Positions 6,609 to 12,446 of a stretch of DNA of 64,000 nucleotides are shown here, one piece after another. Position 1 is the first letter of the stretch. Every line of letters starts with the position of its first letter. A model generated the notes under the pieces. That model made no database searches. It had not been told where the DNA came from and saw only the letters and a program-made list of their open reading frames with translations. This DNA comes from Curtobacterium caseinilyticum (GTDB lineage Bacteria > Actinomycetota > Actinomycetes > Actinomycetales > Microbacteriaceae). The translations under genes were made by a program, and so were the position numbers. The stretch covers positions 1 through 64,000 of the forward strand of contig NZ_JAUCMN010000009.1 in assembly GCF_030363035.1 (NCBI RefSeq). The letters run 5' to 3'.

Positions 6609-6656
6609 GCAGCCGACGGCTCGGCGGCCCAGCGGCCGGCGGCGCAGCTGCTCAGC
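6604..6656. terminator. Inverted repeat containing both stop codons of convergent genes
   Basis: GCTGAGCAGC at 6604-6613 pairs with GCTGCTCAGC at 6647-6656. The left arm contains the TGA of nei and the right arm the stop of the convergent lipoprotein gene. The 33-base interior is itself GC-rich. A bidirectional terminator role is plausible but there is no T-tract. Confidence 0.4.
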
Positions 6657-7149
6657 GGTCGGCAGCCTCGACGACGCAGCTCTCGGCGCGCTTCGCGGCA
6701 TCGGAGTCGGCGCTGAACGCGCTCGGCGCCGGCGACGCCGACTTCGACTCGTCCGCGGTCGCTTCCTTGGCGGTGTCGTTCACCGCGTAGATGGTGCCCT
6801 TCCACCCGTCGTTCGTCGGGTCCGTCGTGGTCGCCCAGATCGTGACCTCGTCGTCGTTCGCGTCCTTGCTGTCCGACGGCACGATCGACGCCGCGAGGTA
6901 CCAGCCGCCGTCGCCCTCCGCGACGTTCGCGAACTCGGTGGTGTCGTGCGGACCGACCGCGGTGCCGATGGCGTCGACGGCGTTGCTCGAGGCGACCGCA
7001 CAGTCCGCGGACCGTGTCTGCTCCTCGTCACCGGGTACCTTGCCGACCGGGTCGATGTTCTGGGCTCCGCCGGGGTCGCACGCCGTCAGCAGGAGGGCGA
7101 GGGTGGCTGCGCCGAGGAGCGCGGTGGCGGTCTTGGCTCGCGTGGTCAT
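6652..7149 (-). CDS. Small secreted lipoprotein of unknown function
   Basis: 165 residues. A lipoprotein signal is clear: positive start MTTRAK, hydrophobic stretch, lipobox LLTAC near residue 24. The mature part is acidic and Ser/Asp/Ala-rich, with two cysteines (SADC and ESCVVE) that could form one disulfide. A central segment (GGWYLAASIV, EVTIWATT, GWKGTIYAVN) suggests a small beta domain. I do not recognise the family. It is convergent with nei and lies 118 bp downstream of the GH81 gene on the same strand, so it may be the last member of the polysaccharide operon or independent. Confidence 0.75.
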   Translation of the reverse strand: MTTRAKTATALLGAATLALLLTACDPGGAQNIDPVGKVPGDEEQTRSADCAVASSNAVDAIGTAVGPHDTTEFANVAEGDGGWYLAASIVPSDSKDANDDEVTIWATTTDPTNDGWKGTIYAVNDTAKEATADESKSASPAPSAFSADSDAAKRAESCVVEAADR

Positions 7150-7267: not shown

Positions 7268-9349
7268 CTACGCCCGCGTCATGATCCACGCGAGCAGGTA
7301 CGACCGCGTGTTCGCCGAGTCGATCACCGCGTCGGGCAACTGCTGCGCCGCACGCAGGGCCGTCGCCGCGTCCGCCTTCCCGCCGAGCGCCCGGTACATG
7401 AGCAGGTAGTCCCCGAACTGCACGTCGTAGCGCCCGTTCGGCACGGCCTCGGCCAGCACCCGCTGGACCTGCTTCCGCCCGCCGGCACCGACGTACGCGC
7501 CCGCCATCGCCGGCATCGGGATGAGCTCGATCCCGGCGGGGGCCGCCGCCGCCGCGCTGAACCACGTCGCGTGGTCACGCTTGCCGCCCCAGGTCAGCGA
7601 GACCACCCGGTGCGTGAACCCCGGGAACGCCGACAGGTCCGGGTCGAGGACGTCGCGCTGCGCCGATGCGGCCTCGTTGGAGAGCAGCCACGTGCCGACG
7701 GAGCGCAGGGACGACGAGCCGGAGACCGCGCCCCAGCGTGCGACGCCGTTCCAGGCGGACACGGCCTCGGACGACGACTCCTGGTTGTTGCCGTCGGCGA
7801 AGGGCGAGTACCCGGACGCCCAGGAGTGCTGCGCGTACGGGTCGTAGACGCGGAGCGCCGGGAACGACGCGGTCGCGGTGGGCGAGGCGATGTCCGACGC
7901 CACCAGGTCGGCGACGGTCCGCCACCGCTGCACCAGGGACGCGTCGCCGTCCGCGACCATCGCAGCGGCGGACAGGACGTAGCCGTAGTGGAAGTGGTGG
8001 TCGTTGAACTCGTCGGAGCCGAACGACGCCTGCTGTCCGACGAGCCCCTTCACCGTCGGGTCGTAGGCGAAGCACCGCGCGGTGCGCCCGCCGCAGCCGG
8101 CCGGGTCGAACCACTGGTCGAGCTCGGCGACGATCGAGGTCTTCAGCGCCGACGCCTGCGCGTCGAGGCGCAGTGCTACCGCCAGGCGGTACAGGGACGC
8201 GACGCGGTACAGGTCCTTGCCCCCGCCGTAGCTGTCCGCCGCGTACGACGACGCGTCGACGCGCGCGGCGTCCTTGCGCACCTGTGCTGCGAGCGTGCTG
8301 CGCTGGGCCGAGGTCAGCCCGGACAGGTCCAGGCGGTCGGACGGCGTGACGGTGTCGACCGCGAAGCGCAGTGCCGTCCCGGTGCACACCGGGGCGGATC
8401 CCTGGATCGTCGCGTAGCGCAGACCGGTGCACGTGAGGCCGCTCGTCCCCTGCCCCGGCTGCGGCACGAGCACGCCGGCCCCGCCACGGAAGGCGTACGA
8501 CAGCGTGGTCCGCTGCGCACCGCCCGACGCGCTGCGCGCCAGGGTCGCGCCGGTGAGCGGCCGTGCGGCGGCGACGAGGGCCGCCACCTGCTTCGACGAG
8601 GCGCCGTCGGGAGTCGGGAGGAGCACGACGGAGCCACCGCGACGCAGCGTGACACCGCTCGCCGCGATCGTGCCGTCACGGACGACGACCTGCCACGTCC
8701 GACCGCCACCGGTCATGGTCGCGGTGCCGTCGCCGGTCCGCACCACCGGCACGGTCGCCGACAGCTTGCCGTCACGGGCGGCCGTGTAGGTCACCAGCGG
8801 CGATCCCTCGGCGATGACCGAGTGGCCGAGGACCGTGCTGCCCGCGCGGTGCTCGACCGTCACCGAGACGGCGTCGTACGCCGACACGAGGGTGCTCGTG
8901 GCGCCGAGGGTGAACCCGACCTGCTGCACGGCACCGCCGGCGATGGTCTTCTCGGTCGCGCTGACGACGGGCAGCCCGGCGGCGAAGCCGCGCCCCGTCA
9001 CCTGCCACGAGATCGGGGTCGGGAACACCGGCTGCGGGGCCGGCCCGAAGACCAGGCCGGAGAACCAGCGGTTCGTCGGCGGGGTCAGGCCCGTCGCCAG
9101 GCGCATCGTGCCGCCGGTCGACGACGCCACCGTGCCCAGGGCGGTGACCGCGCGGGTCTGGGCCGCCACGTCGACGGAGGCGGCCGTGTCGGTGGCGCTG
9201 GCCGACGGGGTCGGCTGCACCGTGCCTCCCGGCCCGGAGCAGGCGGTCGCCAGCAGGGCGACGACCGTCAGCACCGGGACCAGCAGCAGCGGACGGGAGG
9301 CACGGCGGCGGTCCGCAGGGCGGCCTGCGGCCCGGAGGGGGTCGCGCAC
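7268..9349 (-). CDS. GH81-type endo-1,3-beta-glucanase, predicted lipoprotein
   Basis: 693 residues. A lipoprotein signal (LLATAC near residue 37) anchors it outside the membrane. GH81 landmarks: PPTNRWFSGLVF near residue 95 at the start of the domain, and DEFNDHHFHYGY near 445 followed by NNQESSSEAVSAWNG near 520, where GH81 enzymes carry their catalytic acidic residues. GH81 enzymes are inverting hydrolases specific for beta-1,3-glucan. The GTG start lies three bases after the stop of the HlyD-like gene, so the two are co-translated with the GT2 synthase upstream. In that setting the enzyme may trim or release nascent beta-glucan, as cellulase subunits do in cellulose operons; a purely degradative role is the alternative. 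Confidence 0.88.
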   Translation of the reverse strand: MRDPLRAAGRPADRRRASRPLLLVPVLTVVALLATACSGPGGTVQPTPSASATDTAASVDVAAQTRAVTALGTVASSTGGTMRLATGLTPPTNRWFSGLVFGPAPQPVFPTPISWQVTGRGFAAGLPVVSATEKTIAGGAVQQVGFTLGATSTLVSAYDAVSVTVEHRAGSTVLGHSVIAEGSPLVTYTAARDGKLSATVPVVRTGDGTATMTGGGRTWQVVVRDGTIAASGVTLRRGGSVVLLPTPDGASSKQVAALVAAARPLTGATLARSASGGAQRTTLSYAFRGGAGVLVPQPGQGTSGLTCTGLRYATIQGSAPVCTGTALRFAVDTVTPSDRLDLSGLTSAQRSTLAAQVRKDAARVDASSYAADSYGGGKDLYRVASLYRLAVALRLDAQASALKTSIVAELDQWFDPAGCGGRTARCFAYDPTVKGLVGQQASFGSDEFNDHHFHYGYVLSAAAMVADGDASLVQRWRTVADLVASDIASPTATASFPALRVYDPYAQHSWASGYSPFADGNNQESSSEAVSAWNGVARWGAVSGSSSLRSVGTWLLSNEAASAQRDVLDPDLSAFPGFTHRVVSLTWGGKRDHATWFSAAAAAPAGIELIPMPAMAGAYVGAGGRKQVQRVLAEAVPNGRYDVQFGDYLLMYRALGGKADAATALRAAQQLPDAVIDSANTRSYLLAWIMTRA

Positions 9350-9352
9350 CGG

Positions 9353-10093
9353 CTACAGCCCGATCTGCCGCGAGAAGTCGCGGACGGCGTCGGTGACGCC
9401 GGCGAGCGTGCCGTCGTCGCGCAGGTGCAGCGTCGCGTCCACGGGGGTGCCGGGGCTCGTGATGCCGGACGACGGCGACGCGGACAACTCGGGGCTCTCG
9501 ACGTCGACGGTGGTCTTCGCCTGGCCGTCGTCGTTCGTCTGCACGCTCACGCTCTGCACGCGACCGGTGATGGTGCGGTCGTCGGGCAGGCGCAGCTCGA
9601 CCTCGGCACCGTTCTGGATGCGCCCGTAGTCGCGAGCGGAGACGGTGAAGCTCGAGGTGACGAACAGGCTGTCCTCCTTGTGGATGGTGCCCAGCTCGGA
9701 ACCGGCCTGCACGTAGCCGCCGGTCTTCACGTCGATCTTCGCCACCGTGCCGGAGACCTCGGCCTTGAACGTGATGAACCCGTCCTTGCCGATGTCGTAG
9801 GCGCTCGTCTGCGTGTCCGCGCCGACGACGCCCTTGCGGATGTCCTGGGCGAGCTGGAGGCTCTGCACCTGCAGGAGCTCGTCCCCCTTCTTCACGGAGT
9901 CGCCCTCCTCGACGTACTCCTCGGTCACGGTCCCGCCGTAGTCGGTGCCCACGGCGTACTCCTGCGCCGCGATCGCAGCCGAGGTGCTCGCCACGGCGCT
10001 CTGGCGCTGGTTGAAGACGAGCGTGCACGCGGCGACGATCACCAGGACGACCACCAGGCCGCCGAGGAGTCGGAGTCGGTTGGTCCAGGTCAT
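9353..10093 (-). CDS. HlyD-like membrane-anchored adaptor with lipoyl-type hairpin
   Basis: 246 residues. One N-terminal membrane anchor (about residues 8-27) is followed by two half-lipoyl segments, VEEGDSVKKGDELLQV and VSGTVAKIDVKTGGYVQAG, then a beta-barrel domain typical of membrane-fusion proteins. No long coiled coil. Such proteins pair with ABC exporters or, as Alg44 does with Alg8, with processive GT2 synthases. Its ATG overlaps the GT2 stop by four bases (ATGA), so translation is coupled. I infer a polymer-export or synthase-accessory role. No PilZ domain is visible, so no direct c-di-GMP control is indicated. The start is fixed by the overlap and the membrane segment. Confidence 0.85.
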   Translation of the reverse strand: MTWTNRLRLLGGLVVVLVIVAACTLVFNQRQSAVASTSAAIAAQEYAVGTDYGGTVTEEYVEEGDSVKKGDELLQVQSLQLAQDIRKGVVGADTQTSAYDIGKDGFITFKAEVSGTVAKIDVKTGGYVQAGSELGTIHKEDSLFVTSSFTVSARDYGRIQNGAEVELRLPDDRTITGRVQSVSVQTNDDGQAKTTVDVESPELSASPSSGITSPGTPVDATLHLRDDGTLAGVTDAVRDFSRQIGL

Positions 10094-12009
10094 GCGCGGC
10101 GTCCGTCCTGCATCGAGGCACCGGTGATCGCGGCGCGCTGGGGTTCGAGGGTGTCGGGCCGGACGACGGTCGTCCGGACCGGGCTGACCGGTGCCTGCGC
10201 GAGCGGGGCGGTCGGCCGGACCGCGTGGCCGTGGGCACGCTGGCGGTCGGCGACGCGGTTGCGGGCCTGCTCGCGGAAGGCGGCGACGATGAACGCCGCG
10301 AAGACCAGCGTGTTCGTGATGTTCCACGCGGTCGCCAGGGTGAACTGCCCGTTGCCGAGGTCACGCCACACCGCCACCACGCTCGTCAGGGTGAGGAACA
10401 CGAAGACGAGCACCTGCGGCACGATGAAGTTGAACGGCGAGGGTGTCCGGCCGCGGTCCGCGCCGGTGACGTGCCAGGCCTGCTCCTTGCCGCACAGGAC
10501 GTTCCAGAGGGCGCTGGCGTAGATCGGGAAGGACACGGCCGCGAGCAGCAGCGTCTCGTACCGGAACGAGCCGAGGGCGTAGAACGCGAGCACGACCTGC
10601 ATGAGGTAGAAGCCGAGGTAGAACAGCACCCACTCGCCGGCGCCGATCGACAGGTTCATCGGGCGCAGGTCGAAGTAGATCTCGAGCGGCGGCACGAGGA
10701 GCAGCAGGCCGGGCACGATGCCCGTCAGGTAGAAGCTCGCGGTGACCAGGTACTGCAGGCGCTGGTCCATCGTCAGCTTGTGCTTCGGGTTGAACGGGAA
10801 GTGCGTCAGCAGGATCTCGAACCCACCGGTCGCCCAGCGCAGCTGCTGCTTCGTGAAGCCCTCGATGGTCTCCGGGGCATCGCCGACCGCCAGGGTCATC
10901 GGGATGAAGACCGACTTCCAGCCGCGCTCGTGGAGCATCAGGCTGGTCCAGACGTCCTCGGACTTCGAGTCGGTGTGCATGCCGCCGATGTCGTCGATCG
11001 CGCTGCGGCGGAAGATGACGTTCGTGCCGACGCAGAACGCCGCGTTGAAGCGGTTGCGACCGGGCTGGATGAACTTGTAGAACACCGTCTGCATGTAGCC
11101 GGCGCCGCGCGAGACGAGGTTGTGCAGGTTGCCGTAGGTCTGCGGGGTCTGCACGAACGCGATGGCGTCGTCGGCGAAGAACGGGACCGTCTCGAACAGG
11201 AAGTCCTGCTCCGGCACGAAGTCGGCGTCGAACACCGCGTAGTAGTCGCCCTTCGCCAGGGTCAGGGCGTGGTTGATGTTGCCCGCCTTGGCGCCGTGGG
11301 ACGACAGGCGGCGGACGTACCGGGCGCCGAGCTCGGCCGCGAGCGCCTGCACCTCGTCGCTCCGACCGTCGTCGAGCACCCACGTGCGGTGCTCGCCGCG
11401 CATCGCGACGGCTGCACGCACGGTCGCGGCGATCTTCGCGAGCTCCTCGCCGTAGACGGTGACGAACACGTCGACCACGACCTGCTGGCCGCGGACGTGC
11501 ATCGGCCAGCGGTGCGGCTCGTCCGTGAGCCCGTCGCGGGCGACGGCGTCGCGGTCGAACAGGGTGTCCTGCGTGTGGTGGAACGCGAAGTCGCGGGGGT
11601 CGGCACCGCCGGACAGGATCGTCCACATCGACAGCAGGGCCTGCCCGACGAGCACGCTCTCGGCCACGATCACCAGGCCGTACGGCAGGAAGTCGCCGCG
11701 GTTCGCCGGGTCGAGCAGGAACACCGCGTAGGCCATGACGCCGAGCGTCGCGACGAGGACGATGAGCACCATCACGGGGCTGTGCGCGCGGCTCTCCGAC
11801 CGGGGGCGCACGTGCGGGACCTGCTCGGTCGAGCGACGTCGGCGGACCCGGTCGCGGTCGCGCAGGGTGAGCTGCTGCGGGATCGGCTGCTGGGCGCCCG
11901 GGGCCGGCACGAGGTGTGCGACGTCGGGTGACTGCGGCGGGGAGTTCCGTCGGTAGGGCGGTGTGCTGGCGTCCGGGCGCGATCGACGGACGTCCGTGGG
12001 TGCGGACAA
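10090..12009 (-). CDS. Processive GT2 glycosyltransferase (cellulose/curdlan synthase-like)
   Basis: 639 residues. Two membrane segments (about 80-130), a cytoplasmic GT-A domain, then several more helices to about 600. Processive GT2 signature: VLDDG near 210, FDADF near 260, SKSEDVW near 348 (SED in place of the common TED), QQLRWATGG near 388 as the QxxRW motif. The GFCVGTN-like segment FCVGTN is also typical of the BcsA/CrdS group. It should polymerise UDP-glucose or a related nucleotide sugar and extrude the chain. The first 75 residues are a disordered Arg/Pro tail and I see no PilZ domain. Start is TTG 12009, with AGGAG seven bases upstream. The downstream GH81 beta-1,3-glucanase suggests a beta-1,3-glucan, which is inference. 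Confidence 0.88.
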   Translation of the reverse strand: MSAPTDVRRSRPDASTPPYRRNSPPQSPDVAHLVPAPGAQQPIPQQLTLRDRDRVRRRRSTEQVPHVRPRSESRAHSPVMVLIVLVATLGVMAYAVFLLDPANRGDFLPYGLVIVAESVLVGQALLSMWTILSGGADPRDFAFHHTQDTLFDRDAVARDGLTDEPHRWPMHVRGQQVVVDVFVTVYGEELAKIAATVRAAVAMRGEHRTWVLDDGRSDEVQALAAELGARYVRRLSSHGAKAGNINHALTLAKGDYYAVFDADFVPEQDFLFETVPFFADDAIAFVQTPQTYGNLHNLVSRGAGYMQTVFYKFIQPGRNRFNAAFCVGTNVIFRRSAIDDIGGMHTDSKSEDVWTSLMLHERGWKSVFIPMTLAVGDAPETIEGFTKQQLRWATGGFEILLTHFPFNPKHKLTMDQRLQYLVTASFYLTGIVPGLLLLVPPLEIYFDLRPMNLSIGAGEWVLFYLGFYLMQVVLAFYALGSFRYETLLLAAVSFPIYASALWNVLCGKEQAWHVTGADRGRTPSPFNFIVPQVLVFVFLTLTSVVAVWRDLGNGQFTLATAWNITNTLVFAAFIVAAFREQARNRVADRQRAHGHAVRPTAPLAQAPVSPVRTTVVRPDTLEPQRAAITGASMQDGRRA

Positions 12010-12100
12010 GGCGGTCTCCTGTTCGGGTCGGGAGATGCTCGCGGCCCGCAGGCAGGGACGCCGGCGGGTCGCGAGACGGGCGTCGGCGACTGTGGCGACA

Positions 12101-12113
12101 TGGTTCCGAACCA
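12101..12113. repeat. 13-bp palindrome TGGTTCCGAACCA in the GT2 leader
   Basis: TGGTTC and GAACCA are perfect inverse complements around one central base. The same GGTTCC/GGAACC core occurs in the inverted repeats at 16338-16354, 48793-48852 and 53537-53554. Confidence 0.5.
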
Positions 12114-12126
12114 GGAGGTCCGGCTC

Positions 12127-12151
12127 GGCGCAGGACCAGGGATCCTGCGCC
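12127..12151. promoter_or_regulatory. Perfect 9-bp stem hairpin in the GT2 leader
   Basis: GGCGCAGGA (12127-12135) pairs with TCCTGCGCC (12143-12151) around a seven-base loop. On the transcribed strand it lies about 120 nt before the GT2 start codon, so it could be an RNA element or a repressor dyad. No T-tract follows, which argues against a simple terminator. Confidence 0.5.
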
Positions 12152-12158
12152 GGAGGAG

Positions 12159-12210
12159 GCGACCGAGGGTGCGGTCGCGGTGGTTCGCGACCGAGGGTGC
12201 GGTCGCGGTG
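12159..12210. repeat. Two tandem 28-bp units, each with a 6-bp-arm palindrome
   Basis: A 24-base sequence at 12159-12182 recurs exactly at 12187-12210, giving a 28-bp period. Each copy begins GCGACC and has GGTCGC eight bases later, so each can form a 6-bp stem with an 8-base loop. Twin palindromes upstream of an operon look like paired operator sites or paired RNA hairpins. Confidence 0.6.
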
Positions 12211-12446
12211 TTCGGTGTCGTGTGCGGTCGTGCGGCGACGGCCCGTCGCCGTCGGTCATCGTGACACTACGACGAGGCGGTGCGACCCGGATTGCGAACG
12301 TGTGAACTCGGCAAGGAAGCGCCGCTTTCTGCGGTTTCCCGCACGGACGTGTCCGTCGTCGTGACCTGCGCGGTACGGCCACGAGAGCGGTCGCCCGAGA
12401 CGGTGTCCGGCTGCGGGTGACCGCCCTCGTCGGACGGTGCGAGCGG

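What the first reader, a model, noticed from the sequence alone, without database searches (positions are those of the whole stretch)
7268..12009. GT2 synthase - HlyD-like adaptor - GH81 beta-1,3-glucanase operon: candidate beta-glucan export system
Seen: three genes joined by a 4-bp overlap and a 3-bp gap; the synthase has VLDDG, FDADF, SED and QQLRW motifs; the adaptor has a membrane anchor and split lipoyl halves; the third is a GH81 lipoprotein. Known: processive GT2 synthases often travel with a periplasmic accessory protein and a matching glycanase (cellulose, alginate); GH81 is specific for beta-1,3-glucan. Inference: the operon makes and trims a curdlan-like glucan in a Gram-positive cell with a single membrane. 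I know of no described system with exactly this trio.
Basis: partly seen in the sequence, partly recalled or inferred. Interest (0 to 1): 0.72.

Follow-up and report, generated by a model that had tools for sequence, protein, structure and literature searches.

The report
Actinobacterial curdlan-like glucan synthesis operon
Curtobacterium and many related Gram-positive bacteria carry the same three neighbouring genes (a cellulose-synthase-like membrane enzyme, a short adaptor protein and a GH81-family glucanase), which likely work together to make, secrete and trim a curdlan-like beta-1,3-glucan and would supply candidate curdlan genes for this group.

Summary
The trio is real and exactly placed: GT2 synthase (12009-10090, minus), 246-aa HlyD-type adaptor (10093-9353), GH81 (9349-7268), with a 4-bp overlap and a 3-bp gap. 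It is a conserved unit: all 18 Curtobacterium genomes with the synthase (one GH81 cut by a contig end), 7 of 7 orthologs in a 296-genome class sample, 79 of 80 named loci, and 39 of 40 Cellulomonas-group genomes for the GH81 (adaptor 30 of 30 checked); both exceptions lie at contig ends. Five distant GT2s had neither partner. Candidate catalytic Asp/Glu residues of the GH81 are invariant. The synthase is cellulose-synthase-like, not hyaluronan/chitin-like, but forms its own clade; grouping with CrdS is rejected. HlyD proteins also sit beside the Agrobacterium-type curdlan synthase and the mixed-linkage synthase BgsA, so the pair is a known layout; new are the synthase lineage, an adaptor without alpha-hairpin, and the constant GH81. 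Cellulomonas is a reported curdlan maker with only candidate GT2s listed in the papers read; C. fimi and C. uda carry this synthase. Best reading: beta-1,3-glucan synthesis, secretion and trimming. The linkage is inferred, not shown; mixed-linkage glucan is the main rival.

The parts
10090..12009 (-). GT2 processive beta-glucan synthase (function predicted), 639 aa, TTG start; D,D,SED,QQLRW motifs; no PilZ hit; gating loop reads WHVTG instead of FxVTxK
9353..10093 (-). HlyD/RND-type membrane-anchored adaptor, 246 aa; one N-terminal helix, barrel-sandwich and beta-barrel, no alpha-hairpin in the model
7268..9349 (-). GH81 endo-beta-1,3-glucanase family protein, 693 aa, predicted lipoprotein; conserved D450, E524, E528
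12010..12446 (.). long intergenic stretch upstream of the synthase, presumed to hold the promoter; no sigma-70-like promoter and no Rfam element found

Best explanation
Three adjoining genes, conserved as a unit across many Actinobacteria, encode a cellulose-synthase-like GT2, a short HlyD-type adaptor and a GH81-family protein with invariant Asp/Glu residues, and together they likely make, secrete and trim a curdlan-like beta-1,3-glucan. Mechanism (inferred): the GT2 would polymerise glucose from UDP-glucose on the cytoplasmic face and thread the chain through its own membrane channel. The adaptor, held by one helix, would cap the outer mouth of that channel, as HlyD partners are thought to do for BgsA; with no outer membrane to reach, it would have lost the long alpha-hairpin. 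The GH81, predicted to be anchored by lipid (here) or by a membrane helix (some Cellulomonas), would cut the emerging chain: setting length, clearing stalled polymer, or recovering the glucan later. Shown: gene order, families, conserved residues, conservation. Predicted by model: adaptor shape. Inferred: sugar, linkage, direction of transport, role of cutting.
For: Trio co-conservation: 18 of 66 Curtobacterium genomes have the GT2 and all 18 have adaptor and short GH81 downstream (one GH81 cut by a contig end); none of the 48 GT2-negative genomes has the short GH81 (Fisher p about 1e-16, not corrected for relatedness). Class sample: 7 of 296 have an ortholog (own included; one, G315, has a TGA inside the matched stretch), 7 of 7 with both partners; 5 distant GT2s (33-40%) show neither by tblastn at 1e-4; GH81 base rate is 40 of 296. 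Cellulomonas-group sample: 40 of 60 have the GT2; 39 of 40 have a GH81 1.7-2.5 kb downstream, the other (G375) ends 1.35 kb after the GT2; adaptor downstream in 30 of 30 loci held of those (G375 included); 35 of 40 GT2-positive against 0 of 20 GT2-negative genomes carry a further GH81 of 985-1330 aa. Named loci: 80 of 80 adaptor, 79 of 80 GH81, same strand. GH81 D450 86 of 86 distinct sequences, E524/E528 84 of 84 with the columns present; solved relatives are GH81 endo-beta-1,3-glucanases. HlyD-GT2 pairing occurs in crdASC-type loci (L166, L168) and bgsBA (L134). C. flavigena, and in small amount C. fimi, are reported curdlan makers (PMC3544764, passages); C. fimi and C. uda carry this GT2 by name.
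Against: The GT2 is no closer to CrdS (29.0% core) than to BgsA (29.2%) or to three BcsAs (29.4-32.7%), and a clade with CrdS is rejected (p-AU 0.00026; test chosen after a first tree had been seen). Of six CrdS residues named as distinct glucan contacts (PMC6821405 Table 2), only Gln237 is kept, and that Gln is also in every non-BcsA GT2 compared; Lys270 is Arg as in BgsA, and His374, Lys382, Trp422, His442 are V, G, V/I, L/M (alignment at low identity). The gating-loop Lys of FxVTxK is absent. No glucan phenotype for Curtobacterium was found (listing only). C. flavigena was not among the 120 listed relatives by name, and the reported non-producer C. gelida (PMC3035266, passage) was not tested. 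For C. fimi and C. uda only the GT2 was seen, not the neighbours. GH81 could serve attack on fungal or plant beta-1,3-glucan.
Confidence: 0.64

Rival explanations
1. The same machinery likely makes a mixed-linkage (1,3;1,4)-beta-glucan, as BgsBA does, and the GH81 cuts at stretches of 1,3 bonds.
For: BgsA is partnered by a HlyD protein; the trio GT2 shares Gln and Arg with BgsA at the positions of CrdS Gln237/Gln259 and Lys270; a Gram-positive GT2 (Romboutsia RiGT2) can make mixed-linkage glucan (PMC10374906, passages).
Against: GH81 is a beta-1,3-glucanase family, whereas a mixed-linkage maker would rather be expected to carry a lichenase (inference); the model has no folded C-terminal domain like that described for BgsA; the trio GT2 is not in the BgsA clade.
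Confidence: 0.2
2. The GT2-adaptor pair makes cellulose or another polymer, and the GH81 is a degradative enzyme for fungal or plant callose that merely shares the operon.
For: Automatic names call many of the relatives cellulose synthase; CelA is the best NCBIfam model, far under its cut-off (236 of 699 bits); the model's fold is nearest BcsA; GH81 of the plant-associated genus Frigoribacterium was listed among secreted beta-1,3-glucan-acting enzymes, with role left undetermined (PMC12823222, passages).
Against: Linkage of GH81 to this GT2 clade is essentially invariant over many genera; no PilZ hit and no BcsB neighbour; BcsA-type residues at His276, Asn298, Leu309 and Glu480 are absent; large GH81s (open frames 1679-2484 aa) exist apart from the trio and are presumably the degradative ones.
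Confidence: 0.11
3. The GT2 transfers another sugar (for example GlcNAc or mannose) and the GH81 acts on a different or modified substrate.
For: The substrate cannot be read from sequence; GT2 is a broad family.
Against: PgaC (75 bits) and NodC (27 bits) models score far below CelA; solved GH81 relatives are named endo-beta-1,3-glucanases.
Confidence: 0.05

Closest known systems
Agrobacterium-type curdlan operon crdASC (L166 Agrobacterium plasmid, L168 Rhizobium plasmid)
   Same: A membrane GT2 with D,D,ED,QxxRW next to a HlyD-type adaptor (CrdA passes HlyD_3 narrowly, 23.9 and 25.6 bits against 22.2); product of the family is beta-1,3-glucan
   Different: Trio GT2 is a separate clade and lacks most CrdS contact residues; adaptor 246 aa against 463-484 aa and lies after, not before, the synthase; GH81 third; a crdC homolog was not searched for
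Sinorhizobium bgsBA mixed-linkage glucan synthase
   Same: HlyD adaptor gene overlapping a GT2 gene; GT2 without PilZ (PMC10374906, PMC5567048, passages)
   Different: Adaptor 410 aa; BgsA has a C-terminal c-di-GMP-binding region (PMC5567048); no glycanase annotated in the pair
Bacterial cellulose synthase Bcs (BcsA-BcsB with GH8)
   Same: GT2 core and fold; a glycanase in the operon
   Different: No PilZ hit, no BcsB; GH81 instead of GH8; BcsA signature residues absent
Clostridial ccsZABHI
   Same: Gram-positive synthase with a cognate, polymer-matched glycanase (PMC7710045, passages)
   Different: Glycanase is beta-1,4-specific and the operon has O-acetylation genes; sequences not compared here
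Cellulomonas curdlan production
   Same: The GT2 is in C. fimi and C. uda; C. fimi is reported to make small amounts (PMC3544764, passages)
   Different: That paper lists two CrdS-like GT2s per genome by percent identity; no adaptor or GH81 linkage in the passages read; whether one of each pair is the trio GT2 was not verified

Membership tests
CrdS curdlan synthase clade | GT2 groups with CrdS in a tree | tested here: not met
   Trio clade 100/100 apart; held-together clade p-AU 0.00026
CrdS curdlan synthase clade | CrdS contact residues Q237, K270, H374, K382, W422, H442 | tested here: not met
   Trio: Q kept; R, V, G, V/I, L/M at the others in 18 trio GT2s
crdASC-type system | HlyD-type adaptor beside the GT2 | tested here: met
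crdASC-type system | crdC gene | not tested
   No homology search with CrdC was run on the trio loci
BgsA mixed-linkage synthase | C-terminal c-di-GMP-binding domain | tested here: not met
   By model only: no folded domain after the last membrane helix, residues 595-639 under pLDDT 50; binding itself not testable
BcsA cellulose synthase | PilZ domain and BcsB partner | tested here: not met
   No PilZ hit; neighbour is a HlyD protein
BcsA cellulose synthase | QTPH and BcsA-type channel residues | tested here: not met
   QTPQ, Q at the Asn298 position, R at Leu309, L/M at Glu480
GH81 | Catalytic-domain profile over cut-off and conserved Asp/Glu | tested here: met
   150.6 bits against 25.6; D450 86/86, E524/E528 84/84; which of these is catalytic is recalled, not from a call
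GH81 | N-terminal beta-sandwich domain | tested here: inconclusive
   No Pfam hit; weak alignment of residues 90-160 to 6fop
GH81 | Endo-beta-1,3-glucanase activity | not testable with these tools
   Needs an assay
HlyD/RND membrane-fusion proteins | Barrel-sandwich and beta-barrel domains | tested here: met
   HlyD_3 60.1 bits; model matches ZneB, BesA, MexA, AcrA, TM-score up to 0.59
HlyD/RND membrane-fusion proteins | Long alpha-helical hairpin | tested here: not met
   Only an 8-residue helix (79-86) between lipoyl halves in the model; the stretch is short in all 39 aligned
Hyaluronan, chitin and PNAG synthases | Best profile or fold match in these families | tested here: not met
   CelA 236 bits, PgaC 75, NodC 27; BcsA ahead of HAS and CHS in Foldseek

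The most novel reading that the evidence does not exclude
This is the Gram-positive curdlan machine: a second, independently evolved lineage of bacterial beta-1,3-glucan synthase, with a hairpin-less one-membrane adaptor and an obligatory GH81 trimmer, spread over many actinobacterial families and accounting for the long-reported curdlan of Cellulomonas.
Probability: 0.5. Interest if true: 0.75.

Novelty: new variant of a known kind. Interest (0 to 1): 0.62.

Why it matters
Curdlan from Cellulomonas has long been reported (a 1990 patent and a 2005 paper are cited in PMC3544764), yet that paper lists candidate GT2s only by percent identity and calls re-use of the polymer unclear. A near-invariant synthase-adaptor-GH81 trio would give defined genes to delete, in non-pathogenic strains, and puts a predicted cutting enzyme in the same operon. 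It would also show that 1,3-specificity arose in a GT2 lineage outside CrdS, useful for finding what sets linkage, and that a HlyD adaptor works in a one-membrane cell without a hairpin.

Tried and rejected
Hyaluronan/chitin/PNAG synthase: rejected by profiles and fold. Cellulose synthase proper: no PilZ hit, no BcsB neighbour, signature residues absent. Reading linkage from CrdS/BcsA residues: inconclusive, as the trio fits neither set. RNA element (for example a c-di-GMP riboswitch): none in the window at Rfam gathering thresholds. Promoter/terminator scan: no promoter (0.0 expected); one terminator-like site against 0.7 by chance. Conserved fourth gene: the commonest non-trio neighbour cluster is in 31 of 104 loci (a DNA glycosylase, as beside the window), so none is general; the taxa of each cluster were not tabulated. 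A 165-aa lipoprotein gene beyond the GH81 is in 13 of 18 Curtobacterium loci, not always adjacent. First tree: 7 of 40 rows were lost by an automatic cut and NodC had a very long branch; its 'NodC' row is an unannotated frame taken at a recalled place on pSymA and picked by motif, so I rest nothing on it. The second tree has 37 rows, without NodC, PgaC and OpgH. 'BgsA' (L134) is so named from its place beside an adaptor gene on S. meliloti pSymB; 'CrdS' (L166, L168) from 14 numbered residues. The lipobox count (64 of 96) is an underestimate because many called starts are too long, and some Cellulomonas copies have a membrane helix instead. GH81 residues: 96 of 104 loci gave a called frame, 86 of them distinct. 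The samples overlap (for instance L039 and L054 are one contig); my attempt to count shared members failed through a wrong pattern, so samples must not be added up. In the class search only the best 4 candidates per genome were scored; L161 is a contig of 7.5 kb. No printed description of the trio was found: the full-text search 'GH81'+'HlyD'+'glycosyltransferase' gave 0 papers; searches showed none in the listings, nor did the passages read; subscription papers and preprints are not held.
Full report
OBSERVATION. The GT2 stop and adaptor start share ATGA; three bases separate adaptor and GH81. The GT2 begins with TTG, six bases after AGGAG. Pfam gives GT2 families up to 84 bits, HlyD_3 at 60 bits and the GH81 C-terminal domain at 151 bits. 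Names of close hits place the window in Curtobacterium.

CONSERVATION. In 66 Curtobacterium genomes, 18 have a GT2 ortholog of 70% identity or more. I fetched the 17 others; all have the adaptor next to it and a GH81 after it, one cut by a contig end. The short GH81 (open frames of 686-1089 aa, apart from cut pieces in G065) occurs in those 18 and in none of the other 48; the GH81s elsewhere in the genus have open frames of 1763-2484 aa. A scan of named genomes gave 551 relatives of which the best 80 were kept, so it is biased to close ones: 80 of 80 have the adaptor downstream on the same strand and 79 of 80 the GH81; the last ends just after the adaptor. They span Curtobacterium, Frigoribacterium, Frondihabitans, Naasia, Cryobacterium, Agromyces, Microbacterium, Cellulomonas, Cellulosimicrobium, Isoptericola, Sanguibacter, Demequina, Serinibacter, Microlunatus and others. 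L130 (Demequina) has two GT2-adaptor pairs before one GH81.

UNSELECTED SAMPLES. To reduce that bias I searched 296 genomes drawn evenly from the class (best 4 candidates per genome scored). Twelve had a GT2 match at 1e-60: seven orthologs (own included; the others 55-69% identical, one, G315, with a TGA inside the match) and five distant ones at 33-40%. All seven have adaptor and GH81; the five show neither by tblastn at 1e-4, one of them on a contig of only 7.5 kb. GH81 occurs in 40 of the 296 genomes, so its place beside seven of seven orthologs is far above the base rate. In 60 genomes of the genus of the C. persica genome, 40 have the GT2 (one, G401, in two frames; one, G392, with a TGA inside the match); 39 have a GH81 about 1.7-2.5 kb downstream on the same strand, and the fortieth contig ends 1.35 kb after the GT2. 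The adaptor was checked in the 30 of these loci that I hold: 30 of 30, the fortieth genome included. In addition 35 of the 40, and 0 of the 20 without the GT2, carry a further GH81 of 985-1330 aa (Fisher p about 1e-11, not corrected for relatedness). The samples overlap and must not be summed.

THE SYNTHASE. Its best solved relatives are BcsA cellulose synthases, as is its predicted fold (mean pLDDT 68, catalytic core mostly 80-97; best match TM-score 0.54). CelA scores 236 bits, PgaC 75, NodC 27, all below their cut-offs. For references I took BgsA with BgsB (L134, Sinorhizobium pSymB), BcsA (L136, L138, L169) and two plasmid loci with the order HlyD protein - GT2 - unknown protein of 423-426 aa (L166, L168). 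In both, all 14 numbered residues that PMC6821405 gives for CrdS in the section read are in place, so I treat them as crdASC. Core identity of the window GT2 is 29.0% to CrdS, 29.2% to BgsA and 29.4-32.7% to three BcsAs; the 18 trio GT2s form a clade with 100/100 support, and forcing them with CrdS lowers the likelihood by 93 units (p-AU 0.00026; long branches are present, and the test followed a first tree). The trio has Gln where BcsA has His276 and Asn298, as CrdS and BgsA do, but so have most other non-BcsA GT2s compared, and only one of six CrdS-specific contacts is kept. Its gating loop reads WxVTG or a variant in place of FxVTxK, a motif which that paper calls fully conserved in BcsA, CrdS and BgsA (section 5, part 1). 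So the linkage cannot be read from the synthase alone.

THE ADAPTOR. HlyD_3 is over cut-off also in CrdA of both crdASC loci (narrowly) and in BgsB, and PMC9495663 (passages) says of the Rhizobium etli BgsB homolog that its HlyD-like domain is likely involved in a channel that expels the glucan. The pairing of a HlyD protein with a beta-glucan synthase is therefore an established layout. The actinobacterial form is 246 aa against 410-484 aa; its model (pLDDT 84) has one N-terminal helix, barrel-sandwich and beta-barrel domains and only an 8-residue helix where such proteins have a long hairpin. I infer that the hairpin is lost because there is no outer membrane to reach.

THE GLUCANASE. Solved relatives are GH81 endo-beta-1,3-glucanases. 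D450 is present in 86 of 86 distinct sequences and E524 and E528 in 84 of 84 in which those columns are present; that these include the catalytic pair is recalled. The window copy has a lipobox; at least 64 of 96 called copies do, and several Cellulomonas copies have a membrane helix instead. An active, cell-anchored cutter is the simplest reading, untested.

WHAT IT DOES. The synthase is a processive glucosyltransferase by family; the one constant partner besides the adaptor is of an enzyme family that cuts beta-1,3-glucan; and a genus rich in the trio is a reported curdlan maker. PMC3544764 (passages) reports abundant curdlan in C. flavigena, small amounts in C. fimi, two GT2s per genome with 35-39% identity to CrdS, GH81 in all three genomes, and says it is unclear how C. 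flavigena re-uses its curdlan. In my comparison CrdS matches three Cellulomonas trio GT2s (L082, L112, L124) at 35.5-40.9% over 254-318 residues, a similar range; I did not verify that one of those two is the trio GT2. C. fimi and C. uda carry the trio GT2 by name (their neighbours were not seen); C. flavigena did not appear by name in the 120 listed, and C. gelida, a reported non-producer (PMC3035266, passage), could not be checked. I therefore put curdlan-like glucan at about 0.64 and mixed-linkage glucan at 0.2.

NOVELTY. Full-text searches found no description of the trio (open-access papers only, mostly listings). It works like the crdAS/bgsBA pair plus a polymer-matched glycanase as in Bcs or Ccs operons, but its GT2 is outside the CrdS, BgsA and BcsA clades as tested. 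Hence: new variant of a known kind.

Noticed in passing
L051 6755-10975 (+); same kind of match in nine Curtobacterium genomes (loci L022-L029 hold eight): A different GT2 in one open frame of about 1270-1406 aa; in the one tested (L051) it is followed by an acyltransferase-3 and an SGNH domain: a predicted one-protein synthase and O-acetylase of an unknown polymer.
   Followed up: partly
L053 7930-9957 (-) and 4977-7856 (-), own genome contig C3: A second cellulose-synthase-like GT2 (675 aa, QTPQ, QRLRW) next to an OpgC-domain membrane protein and near an fn3-domain protein; no relative of the adaptor or GH81 found in the 18-kb stretch.
   Followed up: partly
L159 5808-8951 (-): Distant GT2 (40% core identity) in one open frame with a PMT_2 mannosyltransferase domain.
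   Followed up: no
Cellulomonas-group genomes G380, G384, G386, G392, G414, G417, G418: A second GH81 of about 1100-1300 aa follows the trio about 4.5 kb after the synthase, and GH81s of this size class occur only in synthase-positive genomes of the 60 sampled.
   Followed up: partly
G401:C1:360067-361748: The synthase match is split over two overlapping frames: a real break or a sequencing error; described only.
   Followed up: no
L130: Demequina locus with two consecutive GT2-adaptor pairs ahead of one GH81.
   Followed up: no
window 6652-7149 (-): 165-aa predicted lipoprotein with no Pfam hit beyond the GH81, found in 13 of 18 Curtobacterium trio loci but not always adjacent.
   Followed up: partly
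L137 2348-5518, L140 2217-5530, L170 1832-4932: Further HlyD-GT2 pairs on proteobacterial plasmids, related to but distinct from CrdS and BgsA in the tree; L170 has a GH8 gene nearby.
   Followed up: partly
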